Assembly (NCBI GenBank): GCA_914767715.1
Contig: OU612071.1
Coordinates: 5,642,001-5,706,000 of the forward strand
Reading direction: 5' to 3'
DNA from: Membranipora membranacea
Lineage: Eukaryota > Bryozoa > Gymnolaemata > Cheilostomatida > Membraniporidae
Length of the DNA: 64,000 nucleotides
Shown here: piece after piece, positions 14,467 through 59,930 of the stretch
Position numbering within the stretch: the first letter of the stretch is position 1
Layout: every line of letters starts with the position of its first letter
Translations under genes and position numbers: made by a program
Notes under the pieces: model-generated
Databases searched by the model: none
The model's input: only the letters and a program-made list of their open reading frames with translations
Told to the model about the DNA's origin: nothing

Positions 14467-16980
14467 TTACTTAGCTTTTGTCTTCACACAGTGCTGTTGC
14501 CATATCCATGCAGATGCGCTTTCTGCCTCATGTACTATGCTTTTTGTGGCTTGTTTGAGTGCTCTTCCTGAAAGCCCAACTCTGGTCAGAAATTTGGTAG
14601 CTGATCTAGCCATGAATCCACGGCAGCCAACTTCCACTGCGAATAATTCGCAATTCCAACCTTTGTCTTGGCATTGTGTGACCAGATCTTCGTATCTTGT
14701 CAGTTTTCTCTCATGCGCATATGAGAGATTTTCTTCCCAAGGCACCGTCAATTCCATCAGTATTAGTGCTTTTTCTTTGTCAGACCAAACAATTAAGTCT
14801 GGTCTTTGGTTCGTGATCACAATATGCTGTGGCATGCTGAGCTGCTCTGTGAGGTCGCATCTCACCTGCCATTCTCCGCTGTTCATCAATCCCTTTTTGC
14901 GCAAAATCTTTTCACGCGCTTCACCACCAGCATTAGCATATTCACACTTCTCCGTGACATATTTACACAACACTTTCAGGACTTGATTATGCCTATACGT
15001 GTATCTTCCCAGGCTCTGTTGGCAATTCGACAGTATATGTCGAAGTGTGCCCTTAGCCGAGCACTCGGCGCATTTCGAGTTCTCGGTCAAATTCCAGCGT
15101 TCCAGGTTTGCCGGGGTCGGTAGTTGATCATAAGCTGCACCAACCAGAAAGCTGATCCTTTGTGGCTCCATCGACCACAATTCTGTCCATTTGAGCTGAC
15201 GCTGCTCAACAGACTCCCAACAAGTCCACCTGCCTTGTTGGGCTTGGCCTACAGCTTGTGTCTGGCGGCGCTCCTCTTCCATCTTGCGCACCTCATCAAC
15301 TACCATCTCCCGTCTAACCTTTGGGCTTTCCTTTGAGAACCACCGGTTTGCTTCCCAGCCGATGCCATGACGTGCAGTTGTCACAGCACCCACAATCTCA
15401 CTTATCTCCAGTCGAGATTTGGCATCTCTGACAGTCTCTGTGACAGACCATTTTTTACCAGTGTCAAGTGTTGGAGCACATTCCCTTATCACCTGGTCTG
15501 GTGACTCGTTCAACATCATATCCAGTCTCGCCTTCGATGTTTTGTACTCTTCCACAAGCGATTTCATAGGTAGTGAAAGAGTAAACGAACTGGCATACAG
15601 TGCATTAGTGTTGAAGCTCCTTGGAACTCCGAGCCACTTACGCATGTGCTTGTTAATCATTTGCTCCATTCTCTCAACTGGTGTTAGCGGAATATCATAA
15701 ACTGTCAGAGGCCACAGAATTCGAGGCATGAGTGCAAAGTTGAGAATCCAGGCTTTGTATTTGCCAGACAGACCACATTTTTCAATCGCGTCAAGCCCTG
15801 TAATGAGTTGCTTTTTCACCTCGTTTCCGCGAAACCTGTCTGTGATCGGTAAACTATACCATCTTCCTAAGCTCTTCACAGGCTGCTCTGCAAGCGTGGG
15901 AATACGCTCTGTTCCTATGAAGTAGGTATTTGGTACAGGTTTGCCTTTACACAAAGACAGGGACCGGCTCTTGCTAGGTTTGAATCGCATCGCACATCTC
16001 TCTATCAACTCATGCAGTCTATCGATTGAAGCTACAACCTGGGCCTTATCTGGTGATATTATTGTAATATCGTCCATAAAGGCCCTCATCGGCGGTAGTA
16101 TCTGGTTATTCGCAACCTGGATCCCATTCACACTGCCTTGCGAATTCCGTATAACTATCTCCATCACCATAACGAATAGCAAAGGTGATATAGCACATCC
16201 CATAGGGATGCCTACTGCCAGCTCTTGCCAGCTCGTGGTAAAGTTCTTAGTAGTGAATCGCATTTTGAACTTTTTATAGTAGCGCTCAACCATAACCCTT
16301 AGCCTGTCGGGCACCCAGAAGTGTGATAGTGCGAGGTCAATTATGCTGTGCGGTACAGAACCATAGGCATTCGCCAAATCCAACCAGATTACCTCAAGGT
16401 TCGATTTTGCTTGTTTAGCAGACTTTATTGCTGACCAAATCATGCTCACATGCTCAAGACATCCAGGGAATCCTGGGATGCCTGCCTTCTGAACTGATGG
16501 ATCAATGAATCCATTGTTCATAAGATAATCTGTGAGGCGTTTTGCCAGAACGCTGAAGAATATCTTGCCTTCTACATTTAGCAGTGATATTGGTCTAAAC
16601 TGCCCTAGGTCCTCCGCCTTATCCTCTTTCGGTATATACACACCATTCGCACAACACCACTCATCTGGGATCTTGCCAGACTTCCAGATTTGGTTGAGCA
16701 CTGTTGTCAAGATCTCCAGTATGCCTGGACATTTCTTGTATAGCTTATAACTGATGCCATTAATTCCTGGAGCACTTTTGGCACGTGCCTTGGTAACTAC
16801 ATGTGCAACTTCTCCAAGCTTGATATCACCCATCTCAAAACTGAAACCTGGAGATGTTGGACGTTTAAGCCCAGCAATATCAGTGTTCACCTCGCTCTTG
16901 TTACCGTACACTTTTGCCAAGTGTGCCTCAACTTCTGCCTGACTAGCCTTGAGCTCGCCGCTCTTACTCTGCTCAAACAA
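14467..16980 (-). CDS. Reverse transcriptase / REL-endonuclease polyprotein of an R2-group LINE (N-terminally truncated)
   Basis: Uninterrupted 837-codon frame whose first codon is TTG (Leu). The first ATG is at codon 50. RT motifs in order: SAPGINGI (69-76), FRPISLLN (128-135), LDLANAYGSVP with the motif-A Asp (200-210), GIPMGCAISPLLF (257-269) and FMDD (301-304). FMDD replaces the usual F/YADD but keeps both Asp residues. A C-x2-C-x7-H-x4-C knuckle lies at 637-653. A PD-(D/E)xK-type endonuclease follows: RPD (726-728), ELTVPWE (743-749) and K759. This order (RT, CCHC, REL endonuclease) is known for the R2/HERO/NeSL-type non-LTR elements and acts in target-primed reverse transcription. Other long ORFs on the plus strand here are shadows. 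The open frame implies a young insertion, but the copy lacks its N-terminus and a normal start. Confidence 0.92.
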   Translation of the reverse strand: MFEQSKSGELKASQAEVEAHLAKVYGNKSEVNTDIAGLKRPTSPGFSFEMGDIKLGEVAHVVTKARAKSAPGINGISYKLYKKCPGILEILTTVLNQIWKSGKIPDEWCCANGVYIPKEDKAEDLGQFRPISLLNVEGKIFFSVLAKRLTDYLMNNGFIDPSVQKAGIPGFPGCLEHVSMIWSAIKSAKQAKSNLEVIWLDLANAYGSVPHSIIDLALSHFWVPDRLRVMVERYYKKFKMRFTTKNFTTSWQELAVGIPMGCAISPLLFVMVMEIVIRNSQGSVNGIQVANNQILPPMRAFMDDITIISPDKAQVVASIDRLHELIERCAMRFKPSKSRSLSLCKGKPVPNTYFIGTERIPTLAEQPVKSLGRWYSLPITDRFRGNEVKKQLITGLDAIEKCGLSGKYKAWILNFALMPRILWPLTVYDIPLTPVERMEQMINKHMRKWLGVPRSFNTNALYASSFTLSLPMKSLVEEYKTSKARLDMMLNESPDQVIRECAPTLDTGKKWSVTETVRDAKSRLEISEIVGAVTTARHGIGWEANRWFSKESPKVRREMVVDEVRKMEEERRQTQAVGQAQQGRWTCWESVEQRQLKWTELWSMEPQRISFLVGAAYDQLPTPANLERWNLTENSKCAECSAKGTLRHILSNCQQSLGRYTYRHNQVLKVLCKYVTEKCEYANAGGEAREKILRKKGLMNSGEWQVRCDLTEQLSMPQHIVITNQRPDLIVWSDKEKALILMELTVPWEENLSYAHERKLTRYEDLVTQCQDKGWNCELFAVEVGCRGFMARSATKFLTRVGLSGRALKQATKSIVHEAESASAWIWQQHCVKTKAK

Positions 16981-23119: not shown

Positions 23120-26100
23120 ATGGATGAACAAGGCTACATCGGAAATCCCCTTGTTGTCTGTGACGCCGAGTACTATGGTAAACAAGTGCCAGAGGGATCC
23201 ACAGATCTACCTGGAATCGTAACAGAGTCACTTTCAAAGATTTATTCTAAGGCAAGGCTGATGAAGACAGACCTGAAACGGCAGACATGTGTCCCAGTTT
23301 CTATCATCATCTATAACAGTGGCATAGTCGTAGAAGATCAGTCGGGGGAGAGAAAAGAGCAATGGATTCCCATTGAGAGTTTGTATTGCTCAGCAGGTTT
23401 GACCCATAAGTGTAGGAAAGGAACAGTTATCTGTAAACAACTTCATGAACACACAACCAGTCCCAAAGAGCCTTTCTTTGCAATGGTCTTGGAACAAGAA
23501 AAGGGTGATGGACTTAAAGTTTTGACCTGCCATGCTTTCTTGGTGTCATCGACGCAGGAAGCTCAGGCACTTGTTGACGCTACTGAAACAGCTTATAGGA
23601 ACAGGAGAGGATGGGACCACACCATAAAAAATAAAAGACACCTCAATGCTAAAAGGACCTACACTCAGAAAATGATGGGACCGTCATACAGCAACGCTGA
23701 CTCCGTGCTGAAGGAAATCACTGCTTCCCCATCCCCAATAGTTGAACATGACTCAGATGCACCCACTTCAGTTGCTTCTTTCCATCAAGTTGAGAGGCGT
23801 GGGGAAAAAGACAGGGGAAAAGTAGCTAACCGGCATGAAGAAAAGGACCACTCTTACACACTGAAAGAACTGATAGAAAAATTGGTATTGTAATTTAAAT
23901 ATCTCCGTTCTCAACCTAGCTTACTGTTATTCAACTTTCAGATGATTGCCCAATTTGTACAGACCCTTTGTAAGGACCAAACATAAATTATTGCATGAGC
24001 AAACATTTGTGAAATTTTTTGTACTCCATGTAATGTAATGGCACCAGACCCTATTATCCATTTACCATTTGAAAAATAATTGATCATTTAGCATCACAGT
24101 AAAATTTCAATTCATCTCTTATAGTCCTCGGAAAAATTCACACCACAACCGCAATGCTGTCCTAGAATTTCTGGTGAGTAACCATCTACCTGCGCTTGCA
24201 ATGTTGTTTGGAGCGATAATTACAACTTTATCTATTTGAAAGTTATTGCAATGTGGCTTGCTTCTGTCGGTTTTTACTCTCCTGGTCGGCCAGTGTGAAA
24301 TGACCCAAAACAGCCAAATCAGGTAGTACTAGACAAACAGTGATCCTGGTGGCGCTCAAACTCAGGATCTTGTGATCCCAAAACAGACCCTTCTAACTCT
24401 AAGCTATCCCTGAACTTCGTATCTTTATACAAATTCTGATCTTTTGTGGAGCACTGTTATTTAGCCAAATAATTCGTGCTCATAAAGGCTACACACAAAT
24501 TATTGAAATAAATTTGTATGTTCAGACGAGAACCCTTTGAAAACAACTGGGCAATATTCGCAACCATCTAATACTTGTAAGATTGATTATTGGCATACCC
24601 CAACCAGCTGCAAACCATTTTACCAACACAGGAATCGATTCGACAGAATTATCACCTGTAGCTCCTATTGAGGATCCTGATATGACATAGCTATTGTTAT
24701 GTGGGCTCATCACATTTTGGATTATAGTATTGTATTACAACATTCAATTTCAATCTTGACAACGGTGTCTAGGCAACCACTAACTCCATAAATCATAAAC
24801 GTCAAAATTGACTAATGAGAGCCCCCCCCCCCCCCGTATAATTTAAAGCGGATGATTTGAAATCATTGGAACTGGGCAATTTCTTATGACTTTCCAATGT
24901 GTTTGTTGGAATGAAAATTGATTGAGCATGTGTATCACACAATTCCCCATCAGCACATCCCATTCCCATTTAAAAAATTCACTATTGCTCCTTTTATTTC
25001 CGAAAAAGCAGGAGGAATTTGAATGCTGCTAACCCTTTTTAATTTGATTCGGCTGGATGATCACTTTAAGTTGAATGGAATGGAACTTTTATACCCATCT
25101 TCGGCTTTCAAGGGCACACATACACCATGACATTCAAGCCTTGGAATAGCAAAAAATAATCACCAACCCAAAATGAAGTTTAAATGTCTCATCCATATCT
25201 TACTATATGTATATCCCTTGACTCATTGGTTGTAAGAGCCAATTGTCCCGGGCTATTATTGATCAAAACATTGCAGCTGATAATCCAGTATGCCTGTTCA
25301 AATGATTGTTTATGATGATTCATAAGAATGCCCTCAAAATTTTACAATTTGCTTTTGAAATATATGTGGAGCAGTAATATAATCCATTTTCTCAACAGGG
25401 TTTTATTTATATAACAGCATAAAGATATTTTGGTATGCTATCAATTTTTGTCTTATCATAAGTGTCTGCGTTGTGTTTGTAAGTTTGTGTGCTATTGGTA
25501 TTACCTTTACCTCGGTAATTTTTTCATTTGATAATAATGGTTTTTATTTTTATATATGTTGAATAACAATACTGTACCCTCAATAGAAAGGTGTTTGAAA
25601 AGTCAACGATGAAAATAACCTGTTGGATTTTTCGACTCCTCTAAATCAGCTGCAAAAATTGCTCGCTTATCCAATACCCGGACTGGATGTGAACAAGTTC
25701 TCATCTATAGAAGCAAACATGAGTTATACCTTCATCTCTTATTTTAGATAGTTTTCCGGATTTAATGCCTGACCCAATTAGGAGCCTGTCAAGCAGCCTG
25801 GTGAGTTATTTTGATGTTGATAAAAGAACTAATAGAGCAGAGTGTTTCTGTCACATATCTCATCTGTGATGCACAGAAGCAGATCTAACAATACAGTTAG
25901 AAAGTGCGAAAGACCTCATTCTAGCACCTCCTGCTGTTGTGTATTTTTCTGTTTGAAAGATTCATTCTTAAGAACTTTCCTGCTTAGTTTGACAGTAGCA
26001 AAACCCATAAATACAGCTGGTTACTTGACTTGATATAAAAGACACCAAGGTCATGAATGACACAACTCTCTTGGAAAAGTGGCTTTGCTAAGCCATCACT

Positions 26101-26925
26101 ATATCATGGGCTCAAAAACAGATTGTCAATATAGTGATGTATTCTCAATTTTTACATTCATTTTACCCTAGAGGAGTTTAGTTTTCGCGGCATTTAGGAT
26201 TCACTTTTCGCGTTGTTGTCTAGGTTGCGAAATTTAGTGTATCTTAAATTAAACTCACTCACCATAGTTACATAAACAATGTACAATTATACAGAAATAC
26301 ACATTATCTAAGCATGCAAGCTAGCATGGTGTAGTGGTCTAAGTGTCTGCCTTGCTAAGTGTCTGCCTTGCAATCAGATGGAGATTTATGCCCTGGGTTC
26401 GTATCCCAGCTTGGACATTTTTTTAAAATTTTCACTAGTAAGCCTAATAGCGAAATTAAGTACTAGTGAAATTTAGTACTAGTGAAATTTAGTACTAGGT
26501 CCAGATAGCGAAATTTAACTCCTATAGGGTATATCACATTGACCACCCACACAGAAATATTTGCAAATTATTTTTCTCCTCACCGCAGACAACAAGAATT
26601 TCCCTTTGCAGTTATCAACGCTTGTTACCTTTCACTTAAATCTTCATTCGCATAGAATAAGAAGACAAGAAAGGAAACTTTATTTTTTGTGAAACATTTG
26701 AATTATTGTTTGAACCCCTGAATTTAAAGCTCATTCACAACATTTGTTTTTGTTATCTAGGACAGTGGACTTGATAGTGCTCAATCCTCCCTACTGTGTA
26801 CAAATCTTAGTGAGTTAACAGCTCCTTGCATGGCATCAGTTAATCAGTTAGTTGAATTACTAAGTGATATGAAAACAGCTTACACTGCGATGTATCAAAT
26901 GTCGGACGTATTTCGTTCAAGTTAG
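23120..26925 (+). CDS. Gene A: PTB/PID-domain protein with C-terminal DSGLDS motif (spliced, 343 aa)
   Basis: Four coding exons: 23120-23884, 24125-24173, 25748-25800 and 26761-26925 (stop TAG). An acceptor (ttttcag, 23094) followed by an in-frame TAG at 23096 shows a 5' UTR exon upstream and fixes ATG 23120 as start. Phases agree at each junction (0, 1, 0). Residues from about 15 to 170 form a phosphotyrosine-binding-type domain: Y-Y-G strand, helix G-I-V-T-E-S-L-S-K-I-Y, strands V-P-V-S-I-I-I-Y-N-S-G-I and Q-W-I-P-I-E-S-L, then C-H-A-F-L-V and a C-terminal helix A-Q-A-L-V-D-A-T-E-T-A-Y. PTB domains bind NPxY-type peptides or lipids, so an adaptor role is likely. The fold resembles FAM43-type PTB proteins, but orthology is not claimed. 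The tail is Ser/Pro-rich. The last exon starts DSGLDS and ends in a short helical stretch. The donor of exon 1 (gtattg) is weak. An ATTAAA lies at 26974. Confidence 0.8.
24125..24173 (+). other. Gene A coding exon 2
   Basis: A 49 bp exon between 'catctcttatag' and 'gtgagt', reading SSEKFTPQPQCCPRIS plus one base. Enters at phase 0 and leaves at phase 1. Confidence 0.65.
24670..25080 (+). repeat. Dispersed repeat in gene A intron 2
   Basis: About 410 bp repeated in the same orientation at 34480-34875 with roughly three-quarters identity by eye. Shared motifs are 'tcttgacaacggtgtctagg', 'aatcataaacgtcaaaattg' and 'gaaaaagcaggaggaatttg'. It includes a 15-base C-run at about 24821 that the other copy lacks. 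Confidence 0.75.
25748..25800 (+). other. Gene A coding exon 3
   Basis: A 53 bp exon between 'ctcttattttag' and 'gtgagtta', completing an Asp codon and reading SFPDLMPDPIRSLSSSL. Leaves at phase 0. Confidence 0.65.
26166..26529. mobile_element. TA-flanked TIR element with tRNA-like core, copy 2 (gene A intron 3)
   Basis: Second copy of the element at 1015-1361: TA at 26164-26165 and 26530-26531, start CCCTAGAGGAGTTTAG, end ACTCCTATAGGG. It is 17 bp longer overall, mainly because of a 16 bp tandem duplication in the tRNA-like core. Confidence 0.75.
26317..26416 (+). other. tRNA-like sequence inside the MITE, copy 2
   Basis: CAAGCT (26317-26322) pairs perfectly with AGCTTG near 26408-26413. 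A CTGGG/CCCAG stem encloses the TTCGTAT loop. The anticodon-like loop is CTTGCAA. 'ctaagtgtctgccttg' is duplicated in tandem at 26339-26370, which destroys a normal cloverleaf. Confidence 0.5.
26761..26925 (+). other. Gene A coding exon 4 (last), opens with DSGLDS
   Basis: Follows 'tttgttatctag' at phase 0 and ends in TAG at 26923. The first six codons GAC AGT GGA CTT GAT AGT read DSGLDS. Confidence 0.7.
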
Positions 26926-27154
26926 TTGACGTAAACTGAAAGTTGAAACATTCAATTCTGTCTGATCATCATAATTAAAGCTCTGAGTTGAAATGGACGG
27001 AGTCAAACAGAACAGCTAGCAATAAGTAAGCATGATAAAAGAGATGTTTGGATTTGTCTAATTCAAGTTGATCGATAGTGCAAAAATGTATAAGAAGTCC
27101 TTGGAGGAATTCGATTGGATGTCAGCGATTATCAGTTTTAAGGCATCCACATAA

Positions 27155-30100
27155 ATGTGCAGGATTTTCAATCGCATAAATCCAGCGCATCAATTAAAAT
27201 CTTTAGCAAATATGCAATACAACCGCATGCCTCAAGAGCAAGTTTCAAAATACCTTTCGGGTTTATATTTAGTATACGAGGATGACCACTACGAAAAAGA
27301 GAAACTTCCACAAGAGACAAAGGTACAGGTGCGTTATCTGTATATATATATTATGTGAATGATTTTTATTTGGTATTCTGTTGAAAGACAGTTTTCTGAG
27401 CTCTAATTTGAGCCTCCATTCGGAGTGGTCCTCTCTCCAGTTTGGTACTTCTTTCCTACGCAGGATAGGAAAAGGGAGCTGAAAGGAGGGTTTACTTGAA
27501 AACCGCTTATACTGGGATAAAAATGATTTTTGATTCAGAATCTGTACCATTGAAAACTAGGGACATAATTTGGGAAATAATTTTTGTATCCGGATAGTCA
27601 TTTATATCAATTTCTGCCTGTTTTGCGGTCAAATTTCATGAAACTTTTCACAAATCTTGTCACTAAAATTTATCAGCTTTCAAGCCCCCAATGATTTTGA
27701 AACCCTGACACATTTTAATGTCTTATTATAAACGGTTTTTAAGATAACCCCCTTTCCAGATCATTTTTTCTATGCTTTTAGAGGTTAAAAGTTTCAAACT
27801 GGAGAGAGGACTACTCCGAATTGAGGCTCAAATTAGAGCTCAGAAAACTGTCTATGCCAGGGTTGATTTATGCAGGAGGCTGCAAATGATGTAATGTCAC
27901 AATCAAATAAATTTTGAAACACCCATAGAATGCAAAGCACAAGCATCAAGTCTGGCACCCAATTTGCTATGGCCAGCCAGATCAGATACTTTATCACAAA
28001 TGGGGATTTGATTTTCGAGGATCAGGTTTCGAGTTCTTTTTTGGGATTATGTTTGTGAGGAGGGGATGGCTATTTAAAACATGAGATCATTGAGTTTCAA
28101 GTCTGACTAGTGGGTTTCTAATGGGTAAACAAACTGTAAGCTTTCAACCTTTCAATCTTTATTTGCAGATTTTATCGCACACACAAAGAAACAGTCGTGA
28201 CATAGACAGTGAGCACGTCAGCCTTTTGCGTGAGATGACAAGATCAGATGACTCCGTCACATCGGTACACTGTTCGACGTGCACCCTGATCTCATTTGTC
28301 TCTGATAGCAGGGGCACTATATCCCATGTTGCTTTGATTGCTCCAGGACATATTGCATCAGTTCCATACTACAAGTGGCCTAAAACCGACTCGGAATGGG
28401 TGATTTCCACCCTACACACTAAGCAGCCAAATTTTGTAACTTTCAATGCAGATAAGTGGCACTTGAGATCCCCTCAAGGTTTCTTATCCGACAGTCAAAT
28501 TAATGACCTGCCTAAACATGTTGCCGTTCACATACCCTTAAATAGCAGCCATGAACCTGAAGATGATGTGAACTCCAAAACAGAGACGACCCAAGAACAA
28601 GCAGCTTTGAAAAGCCACTCTGTTCTGACCACTGTTGAGGATGTATACTGCTGCCGAAATCTCACCATTTCCTTCGACCAAAACCAGCAAACAGTTAGCT
28701 ATCTGCTGAAATCTTTAGTTAACCAAGAGCTGGATGATGAAATAACAGGGAAATTCTGGTCACCAGATGTAAGCCTATTACATGTATCTTATATGTGTTT
28801 ATTAAATGAATCTTATTTGCTGGCTTAAAGTAAAGATCTATAATATCACATTCGGCTAATACTATTCCATCATTGCAAGCCAATTTATCAAAGACTATGT
28901 GTGAAGGGGATGTTGATTTTCATACCAAACCATAGAACAATGGGATCAATAGATTTTTTGCTAATCTTTCCATTGCAGAATAGTTTGATGCTCGATGCTC
29001 AATGCTTATCATCTAAGACAGGCTTTCACGAATACCGACTTCGGTCATCAGACTTTATCATTGATTTGTTTTAAATTCTAATGCTCACTAATGTGTCTGT
29101 ATCATTTTATCATACAGGGTGTTTGTTGTCATCAAGTTCATGATTCAGACGCCAGCTCAGATGATACAAGTTCCTCTGCGAGCGATTCTCTCACACAGCT
29201 TGAAGATTTAGATAGGCCTCATGATGAGCTGACTGTGACAGTAACTTGCAGTTCACTCAGTAACAACGGACCGACGCTTTTCATGAGCATAGCTGGGAAT
29301 ATAATGAGAAAAGTGGATCACTGTGCTTCAAGCAACGCCTCAACCGAAACAATCTCAAATGATGATCTACACAATGCTATTCTTGCTCAGTGGAACCTTG
29401 ATGTGCTGGAGACTTTGAATGCTGGGGAAATACAGCATTGGTTGGACAATACACCCGCTGTAATAATCACTGAAACTTTCCCCTTTGACAATAAAGAGTT
29501 GGTAGTAGACACCATCAAGCCTGTAAGAGTTTTGAATGGAGGAAGAGCAGCTCTTGAATTCACCCACAGTAAAGTGTCTGATCTCAACCTTCAAGTTTAC
29601 CTTCCCCAGAGTCCGTCTGATGTAGAGGGAAGCCAGGGCGCTGGCAATTCGTTTCCATCAAGTCAGCTTGTCAAACCAGAGGTATCACAGCGTAAACGCA
29701 TAACATATTCACCATGCTAACACCCAAATTTGTATAAAATTGTTACTATTTTAAGGTTATGATAACAATGTTGACCGATTTGGACATTTTATATATCGTT
29801 GGAAAGCTAATCAAACAATGATTCTGAAATTATTGGTTTCAGTATGACGCCACGTCATGAAGTTGCGCTGCTTTGATAATAGGCTTTGTGGAGGATTGTT
29901 TAGAACGATGTTTTGCAGAAACAATGGTTCATAGGGAACTTTCAACTGAATAATATTTAAAAGAAACTTCTGAAGTACCCATGTGGGGCACTTTCTGTCT
30001 CCTGTGGCGTTGCGCCATGCTACATGTCACGACTAATAAATAACATTGGTATCAATTATATTAGGAGTTTCCTGCTCTGTCAGAATGCCTAAGATATTGA

Positions 30101-33100
30101 ATTTCATATAGTTTGAGATCGTAGCATTATTGTTTGGTGTCCACTGTAATCATATCACTATTGTTTAGTTGATTATCTTGAAGCAGCTGCTCTGAAAATG
30201 TCTTCTAAGATTAGCAATTTTGAGGAAATGATAACTGGACTCAGGCAATAATTGTCCTTTAATATTGTACACTGTGTCATGATTTATGGGACATAGATAC
30301 AAAATCACTGTGTAGCATTATTCTATACATCTCTGCTAATACATGAATATCACCAAACAGCTTGTATCAACTCTACTGTTTCCCCAAAAAGTCTTCTCAG
30401 CTGGTAATAACAAATTATAATTATAGTCTGCATGAACTTATCCGAAGGCACAAACCATCAGTTTCAGTGCGCCCATCACGTGGGTGCAAATCATCAATAA
30501 CAAAGCCCAAAACCAGAACTTAACTCAGGGCAAAATCCCCTCTGATCAGTTTCTGGAATGCCTGTTAAGATCTTTACAATTTTTCTTTCAGAAAAATATT
30601 TTTCATTTTTACTTTTGACGCTCTCTCCATTTTGTATACCAGAAGACCTATGATGGTAATTTTGAATGTCTATGCATCTAAATGGTTCCATGGTTAAAAT
30701 AAAGCTACATACATACATACATACATACATACATTATAAGCATTCTGACAGAGAGGGCAACTCCTAATATTATCGATACCAATGTCTTTTATTAGCCATG
30801 TAGCATAAGGTCTTTCCACAGTAAATAACCTGTATTCTCTATGGGTGGCTTGCATCACATTGGATCCTCATCTATTAAACCAAAGCGACCTAAATAAGCT
30901 AATAACAATAAAAGGATGATTTTTCTTCTAGTGCGCAATGCCACAGGATCCAGAAATTGCGCGTCAATTGCTCCCATTAATCAGTTGAAAGTCTGATATT
31001 AATCATAGTATCTGCACCACATCATCCTAAGAAATCCTCCTCAGAAACGATTATCCTGCATTTTATCAAAATAGCGCAACGCCATGACATGATGTCATGC
31101 TGAAACCAATATTTTCAGAATCAATGTTCTATTACCTTTCCAACGATATATAAATGTCAAAATCGGTCAACGTTGGTATCATAACTGGGTATACTTACTT
31201 TTTTCTTTTTGCAAAGGATGTCACATATCCTCATAGGCGAGATCTACTGTATTGTGAGCATGGGAAAATGTTTGATGCTCTTAGAAAACATCACAAAATC
31301 GAAGATCATGGTTTCAATCTCACAGCTATTCTAACAAACACCCTGCTCCAAAGTGAGAATGGTGATTACGAAGTTTCATCACAGACTATACTGATCAAAG
31401 GAATCTCTTGTGGAATAAAATCTGAAGGCACCTTCGTTCCATCCGATCAAAGGTAGATAGGAATACATAGATTAATTGCATATCCATTCTGCGATGAAGC
31501 ACTGATACATAAAAAAGTAAGACCAAGTAAAATTTTTGTGTTTTAAGAATTTTCTTGTGTCTGGTGCGTTTGTGTTACTGACAGGAGATCTTACCTTTTT
31601 GTTCTGAGCAAACTGTTTCAGCAAAGTTTGTTAACATCGCAAGAGTAGTATAATATCTATATCCGTTCATATATCTATGGATGAGAGTTCTTTGCTTCTC
31701 AATTTTTTCTCATATAATCGTAGGAAGTTCCACAAGAAAAGGGCACCAAAGCTTTCCCACTTGGACTTGAGACAAGGTTCTGGGTGGAAAACTTCAACAC
31801 ATTGGATCAGCAGCAAAACCCTGATAGAGACATTAGAACAGACTTGGGAAGCATCAACAAAACTAACAGAACAAGCAAAATTGCTGAAGAGCTACCCTCC
31901 CTTTGGAACATTTGATGTCATGTCTAATGAGCCAAAAGCCATCATTCTCTTCCCCGAGTTTAATGGAGCTGGTAATCCAATACTGACTCACAATGGCTCA
32001 GTTATGGAGTATGACCCCGTATATGGACATTTCCACTGGAGAACCTGCCCAAGGAAATACAAGGGTGTGCAAGGAATTTGTTCATACAGGCTGGTCGATC
32101 ATTGTAAAATGGTAAGTATTGTAATAGCATTTCAATATTATGACCAACAATAAATGCTTGTGGTTGAATATAGATGTAACATATATAAGGTAAAATCTGT
32201 AACATACCTGAGCACAGTGATACAGTAATAATATGATAAAATAGGTTGTCGAGTTTTTAAAGAAAAAAATACGTTACTCAAATTTGTAGCAGTAGCAAAT
32301 AGGTGACCTGGTAATTCTTATTTTATCAAGACCGGCAGTATAGATGTACATGAGAATGATGAGATTGGACCAACTGACCTGATGAAAAGACTTCAGTATT
32401 GTCCACCCAGTCCTAGTCATGGCTGTACAAAGGCGGAGCTGACTTTGAATAGACATCAGGTGCAAACAAAGGTGAAGATCACAAAAGGCAGCATCAAGAT
32501 TGCAGAGGGTATGCAGACTGCAGATTTGTTGATTATTGCAGATCAGCTTAAACCTTACATCGATTCTCGACTGAACAGCTCTATTTATGATGACCCTCTC
32601 ACTATTTGGAAAAACTCGACTTTCCAACACCAGTCTCAGAGCAGCGAAGAACTGCAGCTGATGGCATTTATCAAAAGTTGTTGGGATGAAAAGTGTAATC
32701 AGGATGTTGCACGATTTGTATCATTTGCAAAAATGCCAAAAGGTGAGAGATATGGTCCCTTGGAGCTTACCTTTAAAGGGCGCGATGTGAGGAATGACAA
32801 AACGTTGTTTGATATACACGCCCATAGTCCCGCAACTGAGGCCCTATATTATTACATTACAACTGATCCAGACCTTAAAACAAGTTTGGAAGGCATTGTG
32901 GCCATACATCATGGCTTACTTTCCAAAGATCCAGCCAACCATAGTGACCAAGGGTCAAACATAAAACATTCACTTATGTCTAATGAGAAAGTAAAAAAAT
33001 TCATAGCTACCCTCAATCAGAAAGATTTACCAACTTCTTTCCTCTACCCTACCATTGGTGTGAAACTAGAATTTCTGCCTTACCCTAATCAGTTTTGTAC

Positions 33101-33254
33101 CGAGTCTGTGCATAGTCATGTTGCCTACACAAACAGCAACAGCACACATATCAGATTTTCTAGGCGGGGTATCCATAAACGAGAAGTTGATGGGGAAGTG
33201 TTGATGGAACTTATTGGACTTTCCAAGCAATCGATGGCTGTTGCTCGATGTTGA
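27155..33254 (+). CDS. Gene B: large protein of unrecognised family (spliced, about 961 aa)
   Basis: Six exons: 27155-27328, 28169-28768, 29118-29681, 31217-31452, 31724-32111 and 32331-33254 (stop TGA). Junction phases 0, 0, 0, 2, 0 all match. Exons 2 and 5 have strong donors (gtaagc, gtaagt). Exon 1 could instead stop at 27322, and exon 3 uses a weak gtatca donor. ATG 27155 is preceded directly by an in-frame TAA. No signal peptide or membrane segment is seen, so it is probably intracellular. Visible features: a Ser/Asp-rich acidic linker (D-S-D-A-S-S-D-D-T-S-S-S) at the start of exon 3; a basic patch RKFHKKRAPK at the exon 4/5 border; a Trp/Cys-rich stretch with GHFHWRTCPRKY at the end of exon 5; and a long globular C-terminal region ending SFLYPTIGVKLEFLPYP and VLMELIGLSKQ. 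I recognise no catalytic motif or family. It lies 229 bp downstream of gene A on the same strand. Confidence 0.72.
27386..27853. repeat. Inverted repeat in gene B intron 1
   Basis: Arms 27386-27443 and 27796-27853 are 58 bp each with about two mismatches (shared 'tttgagcctc', 'ctctctccagttt'), separated by 352 bp. The whole hairpin is inside intron 1 and could fold in the pre-mRNA. Confidence 0.85.
29756..31186. mobile_element. Long-TIR element filling gene B intron 3
   Basis: The left arm 29756-30016 and right arm 30931-31186 are diverged inverted repeats (shared 'tatatatcgttggaaag', 'aatattggtttcag', 'cctgtggcgttgcgc'). The 0.9 kb between them is unique and includes a CATA tetranucleotide run at about 30700-30734. 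The outer end lies 30 bp from the exon 4 acceptor. It looks like a non-autonomous foldback element. No transposase seen. Confidence 0.7.
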
Positions 33255-34479
33255 CAGCATTCACTTCAGGCATCAGACTGATTATAACAATTATAGCATG
33301 ACTGCAAAGTAGGATTTTCATTTTTTGTAAAGGCTAAAACTGATTATTTTATTTCTGACACAGGCTAATCTTCAACCAAAATTTTAGAGCAGGCGCTGTT
33401 TAATAGACGCAGCCTGTATAAAAATGGAAATATTAGAGCAGTTTTTACTTCCTACACCACCGATTTATAACAAAATTATTTGAACATATTTTATTTTATG
33501 CACAGCTTGCTTTAACAACTATACTATTGAAGTACGATTTTGTTTTATGAGTGAGTTGCGAGTATTTTTTGTAATCATGTGACATTGCTGGAAATGCCTT
33601 CCCATTAAATTCAGTGAAAATTGAAGTGTTGAAGTGGGGGTAACAACCCTTACATTCCAAGAGGTAATACTTTGTTAAGCACATATTTCACATATCATAT
33701 CAATATTTATCACAGGCAAAATATTGAGTCTGACGCAAGTATTGCAGATCTGTATCTAATCCTGTATATATTCATTCATTAGATATTATGATGTATTATT
33801 AGTTTATACCGCGCATTTTATGCATTGATTTATTGCAACGACACTGCTCACTTATACTGTATACCACATATTTCATACTGAGTTCAGTACAATAAATCGT
33901 TTATCTAGTGCAGACAGCACATGTAAGTTGTTTACCCTCATCATAAGAAGGGCAGTGACCTGTATCTCCTGATCCGCTGCAGTCTGCCTTTACAAAGTAC
34001 AGGAGAGCACTAATCATGATTGGCTGACATTCCTGTAATAAATGAGCGATTGTTTAATAGTCGTTATTCTCCTCTCCTCAATCAGTCTGCTTGGAATAAA
34101 AATGATTGAAACCGCTTTATGTAGAACCCGTTTTGAAATAATATATAAATAAGAAATAACAGTTGAACTTTGCCAAAAAATCCAGAACCAGTGCGGAATC
34201 GGATGAGACCTGCTTGAGGTATTGTTCCTGAATCGCTCACTTCATGATGGAGCTATAGTAATGTTCGGCGCAAACTATCTAAAGTACTAAGCAAATGAGG
34301 GGGTGCACGGGGATTAATCATGTGTTGTGACAGGCAAGACCATTGGCTGATCAGTGTAATTAGAGGCAGAGAATGGCCTTGGTCTCCGCCTCTAACAGCC
34401 AGTCCACGTTGCGTTCTCAAGTGGTCAAGTGTGTTATATAAGAAATTGTGATTTGCAGACACCTATAAAGTTGAATAGC
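33255..34479 (+). other. Gene B 3' flank and intergenic DNA
   Basis: An AATAAA at 33891-33896 would give a 3' UTR of about 640 bp for gene B. Beyond it no gene was seen. At about 34360-34400 an imperfect palindrome (TAGAGGCAGAGA / TCTCCGCCTCTA) occurs. Confidence 0.4.
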
Positions 34480-59536: not shown

Positions 59537-59930
59537 CAATGCAGTTCTAACAATGCACGGTTCTAACAATGCGCAGTTCTAACAATGCGCAGTTCTAACA
59601 ATGCACAGTTCTAACAATGCGCAGTTCTAACAATGCGCAGTTCTAACAATGCACAGTTCTAACAATGCGCAGTTCTAACAATGCGCAGTTCTAACAATGC
59701 ACAGTTCTAACAATGCGCAGTTCTAACAATGCGCAGTTCTAACAATGCGCAGTTCTAACAATGCGCAGTTCCAACAATGCGCAGTTCAAACAATGCACAG
59801 TTCTAACAATGCGCAGTTCTAACAATGCGCAGTTCTAACAATGCACAGTTCTAACAATGCGCAGTTCTAACAATGCGCAGTTCAAACAATGCGCAGTTCT
59901 AACAATGCGCAGTTCCAACAATGCGCAAGT
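59537..59930. repeat. 16 bp satellite with 48 bp higher-order period
   Basis: About 24-25 head-to-tail units of 'caatgcgcagttctaa'. A GCACAG variant replaces GCGCAG in every third unit over most of the array, so the true period is 48 bp. Two runs of five GCGCAG units break the pattern. Unit ends vary (ttct, ttcc, ttca). Confidence 0.92.

What the first reader, a model, noticed from the sequence alone, without database searches (positions are those of the whole stretch)
27155..33254. A six-exon gene of about 961 residues with no family I can recognise
All five introns have matching phases, and the exons are long (up to 924 bp) and protein-like, yet no motif points to a known family. It sits 229 bp downstream of the PTB gene on the same strand, so the two may share regulation or even one locus. 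This is the best candidate for an undescribed protein in the window.
Basis: partly seen in the sequence, partly recalled or inferred. Interest (0 to 1): 0.75.

Follow-up and report, generated by a model that had tools for sequence, protein, structure and literature searches.

The report
Unknown repeated-domain gene family in animal
The gene is real and belongs to a previously unlabelled family of about 40 related gene loci in this animal's genome, whose proteins carry several copies of one domain that matches nothing in the family and structure libraries searched; what the proteins do is still unknown.

Summary
The six exons at 27155-33254 splice in frame into 961 residues. Pfam, NCBIfam, PHROGs, PADLOC and PDB give no credible match. 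The gene is not an isolated orphan: searching its own 339-Mb, 18-contig genome gave a divergent multigene family of about 40 loci (39-41 by merging distance) on 10 contigs, six of them on one strand within about 244 kb around the window. Eight of 12 fetched paralogue regions show all exon blocks, with phase-0 introns (26 of 26 modelled); one diverged pair shows strong purifying selection (dN/dS 0.29). Profile comparison shows that exons 2, 3, 4+5 and, weakly, the first half of exon 6 are tandem copies of one ~90-residue module (P 1e-8 to 0.024, none reached by 40 shuffles), followed by a distinct C-terminal domain. The module has no Pfam or PDB match by sequence. Exon 1 is unsupported; the neighbouring PTB-like gene looks separate. 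Function is inferred only: most likely a soluble multi-module binding protein, perhaps for innate recognition or defence (about 30%).

The parts
27155..27328 (+). Proposed exon 1 (58 codons, ATG right after an in-frame TAA); alternative donor at 27322; possible splice acceptor at 27163. Uncertain.
   Evidence: strong donor (top 0.2%) but no conservation in the paralogue loci and weak coding score
28169..28768 (+). Exon 2 = module copy 1 (core 28202-28456), phase 0-0
   Evidence: P0002
29118..29681 (+). Exon 3 = acidic Ser/Asp linker plus module copy 2 (core 29190-29444), phase 0-0
   Evidence: 32 matches of a paralogous exon 3 in the genome
31217..31452 (+). Exon 4 = first part of module copy 3; in 8 of 8 other modelled members it lies in one open frame with the exon 5 part
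31453..31723 (+). Extra intron (phase 2) inside module copy 3, seen in none of the 8 modelled paralogues; flanked by about 18 residues that the module-3 profile lacks
31724..32111 (+). Exon 5 = rest of module copy 3
32331..32708 (+). Exon 6, first half = probable degenerate module copy 4
   Evidence: hhalign P 0.0038, 0.007, 0.018 against the other three modules, same register
32709..33254 (+). Exon 6, second half = distinct conserved C-terminal domain (invariant P, S and two H; LP.PN and AHIRFS motifs) and stop codon
   Evidence: no similarity to the modules
33891..33896 (+). Candidate poly(A) signal AATAAA of this gene
   Evidence: sequence match only
26974..26979 (+). ATTAAA between the upstream PTB-like gene and this gene (candidate end of the upstream gene)
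   Evidence: sequence match only

Best explanation
Shown by sequence: the window holds one member of a divergent animal multigene family (about 40 loci on 10 of 18 contigs). The modelled members encode proteins made of three clear and one probable tandem copies of a ~90-residue module, carried by exons with phase-0 boundaries (the third is split by an extra intron here), plus a conserved C-terminal domain. The family spread by tandem, segmental and dispersed gene duplication. Inferred, about 30%: the modules act together as a binding or recognition scaffold inside the cell, most likely in a rapidly evolving role such as innate recognition or defence. No catalytic motif was recognised.
For: Gene model; open frames beyond chance; close relatives keep the frame. 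Genome matches: exon 6 at 11 places, exon 5 at 8, a paralogous exon 3 at 32, a fused exon 2/3 at 30, a module-3 exon at 8, a distant exon 6 in 19 rows; the first five merge to 38 loci (37-39 by distance) and adds two. 26 of 26 modelled introns are phase 0, in nine genes of which two are near-copies of others; phases were required to match but their value was free. dN/dS 0.29 for L018/L020 over 853 codons, P 7e-42. Codon-position identity window vs L017 0.50/0.61/0.32, similar for L020 and L018. Module homology by hhalign: 2 vs 4/5 P 8.6e-7; 3 vs 4/5 P 1.2e-8; 2 vs 3 P 0.024; the first half of exon 6 vs each P 0.004-0.018; 0 of 40 shuffles reach any of these. No hydrophobic stretch (highest 19-residue hydropathy mean 1.07).
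Against: No transcript was seen. Exon 1, and so the true N-terminus, is unsupported. In 4 of 12 fetched paralogue regions one or two blocks were not found within 10 kb (L024, L025, L027, L028). Two of the loci rest on one hit each with E between 1e-4 and 1e-3 (C11:8446941, C11:9312867; 83). Module 2 vs 3 and the exon 6 comparisons are weak one by one. The second halves of the modules show no significant homology, though exon 2 vs 4/5 second halves beat all 40 shuffles at P 0.17 over 10 columns. The near-identical pair L021/L022 shows little constraint (dN/dS 0.81, P 0.41; 102). Two of 32 exon-3-type matches carry a stop. Nothing tests the functional step.
Confidence: 0.65

Rival explanations
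1. Same family and anatomy, but the proteins serve another clade-specific role (gamete, cytoskeletal or tissue-specific structural proteins) and are not a recognition or defence system.
For: Tandem and dispersed growth with moderate purifying selection fits any lineage-specific family; no immune-type partner domain was found in the ORFs scanned.
Against: Nothing decisive; the weakly constrained pair and low paralogue identity suggest fast evolution more than a structural role.
Confidence: 0.45
2. A very divergent branch of a known family whose sequence signal has been lost to the libraries used.
For: Profiles were small (9-26 rows, all from one genome); no usable structure model (mean pLDDT 33.7 and 39.9), so fold-level homology is untested.
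Against: 0 Pfam families at E<=10 for the whole protein; only scattered sub-threshold hits for 5 exons, 19 paralogue ORFs and 26 module pieces; PDB profile searches with four exon alignments and the module alignment give nothing convincing.
Confidence: 0.4
3. A domesticated or decaying mobile-element protein, or a virus-derived gene.
For: Many dispersed copies; inverted-repeat elements sit in introns 1 and 3.
Against: Conserved phase-0 introns and purifying selection; near-copies are duplicated together with their flanks over most of the 10 kb fetched; no transposase, RT or viral match above a curated threshold in Pfam, nor a credible one in PHROGs; no viral-contig relative in 4 answered scans.
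Confidence: 0.04
4. Chance open frames or a pseudogene, or one transcription unit with the PTB gene.
For: Short 229-bp gap and same strand; one doubtful exon.
Against: as above.
Confidence: 0.02

Closest known systems
Lineage-specific, tandemly expanded animal gene families as a general kind (recalled, no call)
   Same: Many paralogues in clusters, divergence, symmetric exons that carry domains
   Different: The domain itself matches no entry in Pfam or PDB by sequence, nor NCBIfam for the window product
PTB/PID domain protein (gene A, 23120-26925, upstream neighbour)
   Same: Adjacent and on the same strand
   Different: No PTB match in gene B; gene A relatives at C4:25248988, C3:27258024 and C4:12078391, none of them inside a gene-B family locus. 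Gene A itself only reaches E 0.07 to PID_2
TASOR/TEX15 type proteins (DUF3715, SPOC), considered from memory
   Same: Large multi-domain protein of similar look (recalled impression)
   Different: No DUF3715 or SPOC match in any piece scanned

Membership tests
Gene-B multigene family (defined here) | Homologous exon-6 domain with AHIRFS and LP.PN motifs | tested here: met
   11 genome places including the window; alignment
Gene-B multigene family (defined here) | Phase-0 introns between the module exons | tested here: met
   26 of 26 modelled introns in nine genes, plus window 5/6; splice matrix recalled
Gene-B multigene family (defined here) | Tandem homologous modules | tested here: met
   three clear copies; the fourth (first half of exon 6) weak
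PTB/PID domain family | PTB domain in gene B | tested here: not met
   0 Pfam families for the 961-aa product
TASOR/TEX15 (DUF3715) | DUF3715 or SPOC domain | tested here: not met
   profile sensitivity limited
Transposon-encoded protein | Transposase, RT or integrase domain | tested here: not met
Transposon-encoded protein | Terminal repeats and target-site duplication around the gene | tested here: inconclusive
   Large inverted repeats seen inside introns 1 and 3 (region 26900-33600 only); not searched across all copies
Innate recognition or defence receptor family | Known receptor or signalling domain (TIR, Death, NACHT, LRR, etc.) in the same gene | tested here: not met
   None above threshold in the exons and ORFs scanned; ankyrin repeats lie just upstream of the member in L030, linkage not shown
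Innate recognition or defence receptor family | Induction on challenge, ligand binding | not testable with these tools
   no expression data

The most novel reading that the evidence does not exclude
The ~90-residue module is a domain fold not yet described, from which this animal lineage built a large tandem-module family of intracellular recognition proteins: a clade-specific defence or self-recognition system.
Probability: 0.12. Interest if true: 0.8.

Novelty: new variant of a known kind. Interest (0 to 1): 0.55.

Why it matters
A family of about 40 gene loci with a shared, selected domain that Pfam and the PDB do not recognise by sequence is a sizeable hole in annotation. The paralogue alignments made here would let a structure predictor work where the single sequence failed, so the question 'new fold or lost relative' becomes directly testable. 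If the family proves to be a recognition system, it would be a new one.

Tried and rejected
Structure prediction of exon 6 and exon 5 alone gave useless models (mean pLDDT 33.7 and 39.9).

Protein database: the 961-aa query gave 0 hits among 4783 candidates, exon 6 gave 1 of 568, joined exons 2+3 gave 1 of 2503. The database's cover of animal proteins is unknown, so absence elsewhere is weak evidence.

PDB 'hits' to designed PPR proteins (E 0.007) and to RCO1 (E 0.009) rest on short repetitive or 50-residue stretches and were rejected. Sub-threshold Pfam hits (CheR, NA37, GeBP, DUF2205 and others) differ from member to member and were rejected, as were PHROGs hits at E 0.09-0.39. Self-comparison of the single sequence found no internal repeats (and no pair above z 2.5); they appeared only with family profiles. 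An exon 1 resemblance to the start of module 3 (E 0.7) was not taken. One search contained one out-of-frame row (L020, module 3) and was replaced; the script stopped on that row after printing the alignments I cite; one search had frame errors and was replaced. An earlier count said all fetched paralogues have the same exon set; that is too wide: 8 of 12 do. Scans of prokaryotic genome contigs (47, 120) and viral contigs (27, 48, 49, 121) found no relative. Two paper searches by generic terms returned 0 papers and 2 irrelevant listings; only the listings were seen, and nothing is claimed about the literature.

Full report
The observation. The open frames that hold exons 2, 3 and 6 exceed everything in 60 random order-1 windows, and the modelled frame has the best codon score in every exon, though exon 1 is marginal. 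The first database search with the whole product found nothing. Exon 6 alone found P0001, and joined exons 2+3 found P0002; both come from short unnamed contigs and are 96% alike. P0002 continues into both introns, so it is genomic. It differs at 4 of 200 exon residues and 3 of 35 intron-flank residues (P 0.07). The best genome match of P0001 is the window itself at 96%, so P0001 comes from another individual or species, or from a copy missing in the assembly; the frame is kept there.

A family. The window lies at C7:5642001-5706000 of a 339-Mb, 18-contig genome. Searches with exon 6 (11 places), exon 5 (8), a paralogous exon 3 (32), a fused exon 2/3 (30) and a module-3 exon (8) reduce to 38 loci when same-strand hits within 9 kb are merged (39 at 3.5 kb, 37 at 20 kb). 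A distant exon 6 (19 rows) adds two more, C7:5747276 and C11:14722409, added by hand. So the count is 39-41, and the tool calls its counts lower bounds; two loci (C11:8446941, C11:9312867) rest on single hits with E 1e-4 to 1e-3. Six loci on C7 lie on the plus strand between 5545987 and 5789817, one of them (5747276) known from one hit (E 1.6e-5). Two near-identical pairs exist: L018/L019 on C4, inverted and about 40 kb apart, and L021/L022 on C7, alike over most of the 10 kb fetched. Of 32 exon-3-type matches, 30 are open and two have one TAG each. Two of 19 rows show a TAA where the match runs past the genes' own stops (L018, L019).

Gene structure and selection. Eight of the 12 first-fetched paralogue regions show all blocks; L024, L025, L027 and L028 lack one or two within the 10 kb. 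In nine members, including the window, the best phase-matched splice pairs put 26 of 26 introns in phase 0. Two of the nine are near-copies, so seven are independent, and the splice matrix was recalled. The window gene alone among these splits module 3 with a phase-2 intron, beside about 18 extra residues. For L018/L020, 853 codons give dN 0.33, dS 1.13 and a ratio of 0.29 (P 7e-42); the twins give 0.40 (P 0.045) and 0.81 (P 0.41). Codon-position identities between the window and L017, L020 and L018 show the coding order 2 > 1 > 3.

Internal repeats. Single-sequence comparison showed none. With family profiles, exon 3 and exon 4/5 match at P 1.2e-8 and exon 2 and exon 4/5 at P 8.6e-7. Exon 2/exon 3 (0.024) and the first half of exon 6 against the three (0.0038, 0.007, 0.018) are weaker but in the same register. 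No shuffle of 40 reached any of these six scores. Of ten control comparisons with second halves or the C-terminal half of exon 6, none is significant (P 0.17-0.78); one of them (second halves of exon 2 and 4/5, 10 columns) also beat all 40 shuffles. The common pattern is a VT strand, a glycine turn, W.IST, then N..L and a helix-like stretch (reading by eye). In the six more distant members fetched, modules 1 and 2 share one open frame.

What it is not. Pfam, NCBIfam (window product only), PHROGs and PADLOC and PDB by sequence or profile give no consistent match. Viral and prokaryotic contig scans give none (27, 47-49, 120, 121). The PTB-like neighbour (four exons, 343 aa, first donor weak) looks like a separate gene: no PTB match lies in 12 paralogue regions, and its own relatives are elsewhere.

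How it may work. The protein has no hydrophobic segment, carries an acidic Ser/Asp linker in exon 3, and repeats one module in tandem, so a soluble multi-contact binding protein is the most economical reading. Clustered duplication and the weakly constrained pair L021/L022 point to a fast-changing role; recognition or defence is my guess at about 30%, and nothing here tests it.

Noticed in passing
window 27386-27853: 468-bp element with inverted ends (72-bp arms, 90% complementary) in intron 1; another copy lies in L028, so it looks like a dispersed MITE-like repeat.
   Followed up: partly
window 29756-31185: Long nested inverted repeat (arms up to 97 bp, 85% complementary) filling most of intron 3; no copy in 18 fetched loci.
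   Followed up: partly
window 23120-26925: Upstream gene: four exons, 343 aa, divergent PTB-like (PID_2 E 0.07), first donor weak; relatives at C4:25248988 (54%), C3:27258024 (41%) and C4:12078391 (34%).
   Followed up: partly
window 14467-16980 minus: Uninterrupted 837-aa reverse-transcriptase ORF (RVT_1 E 1e-23, zf-RVT below its cut-off).
   Followed up: no
window 26337-26417: tRNA-like match (Rfam 32.1 bits, E 0.0085) that ARAGORN (bacterial code) does not report; next to 16-bp tandem repeats, perhaps a SINE head.
   Followed up: no
L030:1-1320: 440-aa ankyrin-repeat ORF directly upstream of a family member on C11; whether it belongs to the same gene is open.
   Followed up: partly
window 59541-59927: Minisatellite of about 24 copies of a 16-bp unit.
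   Followed up: no
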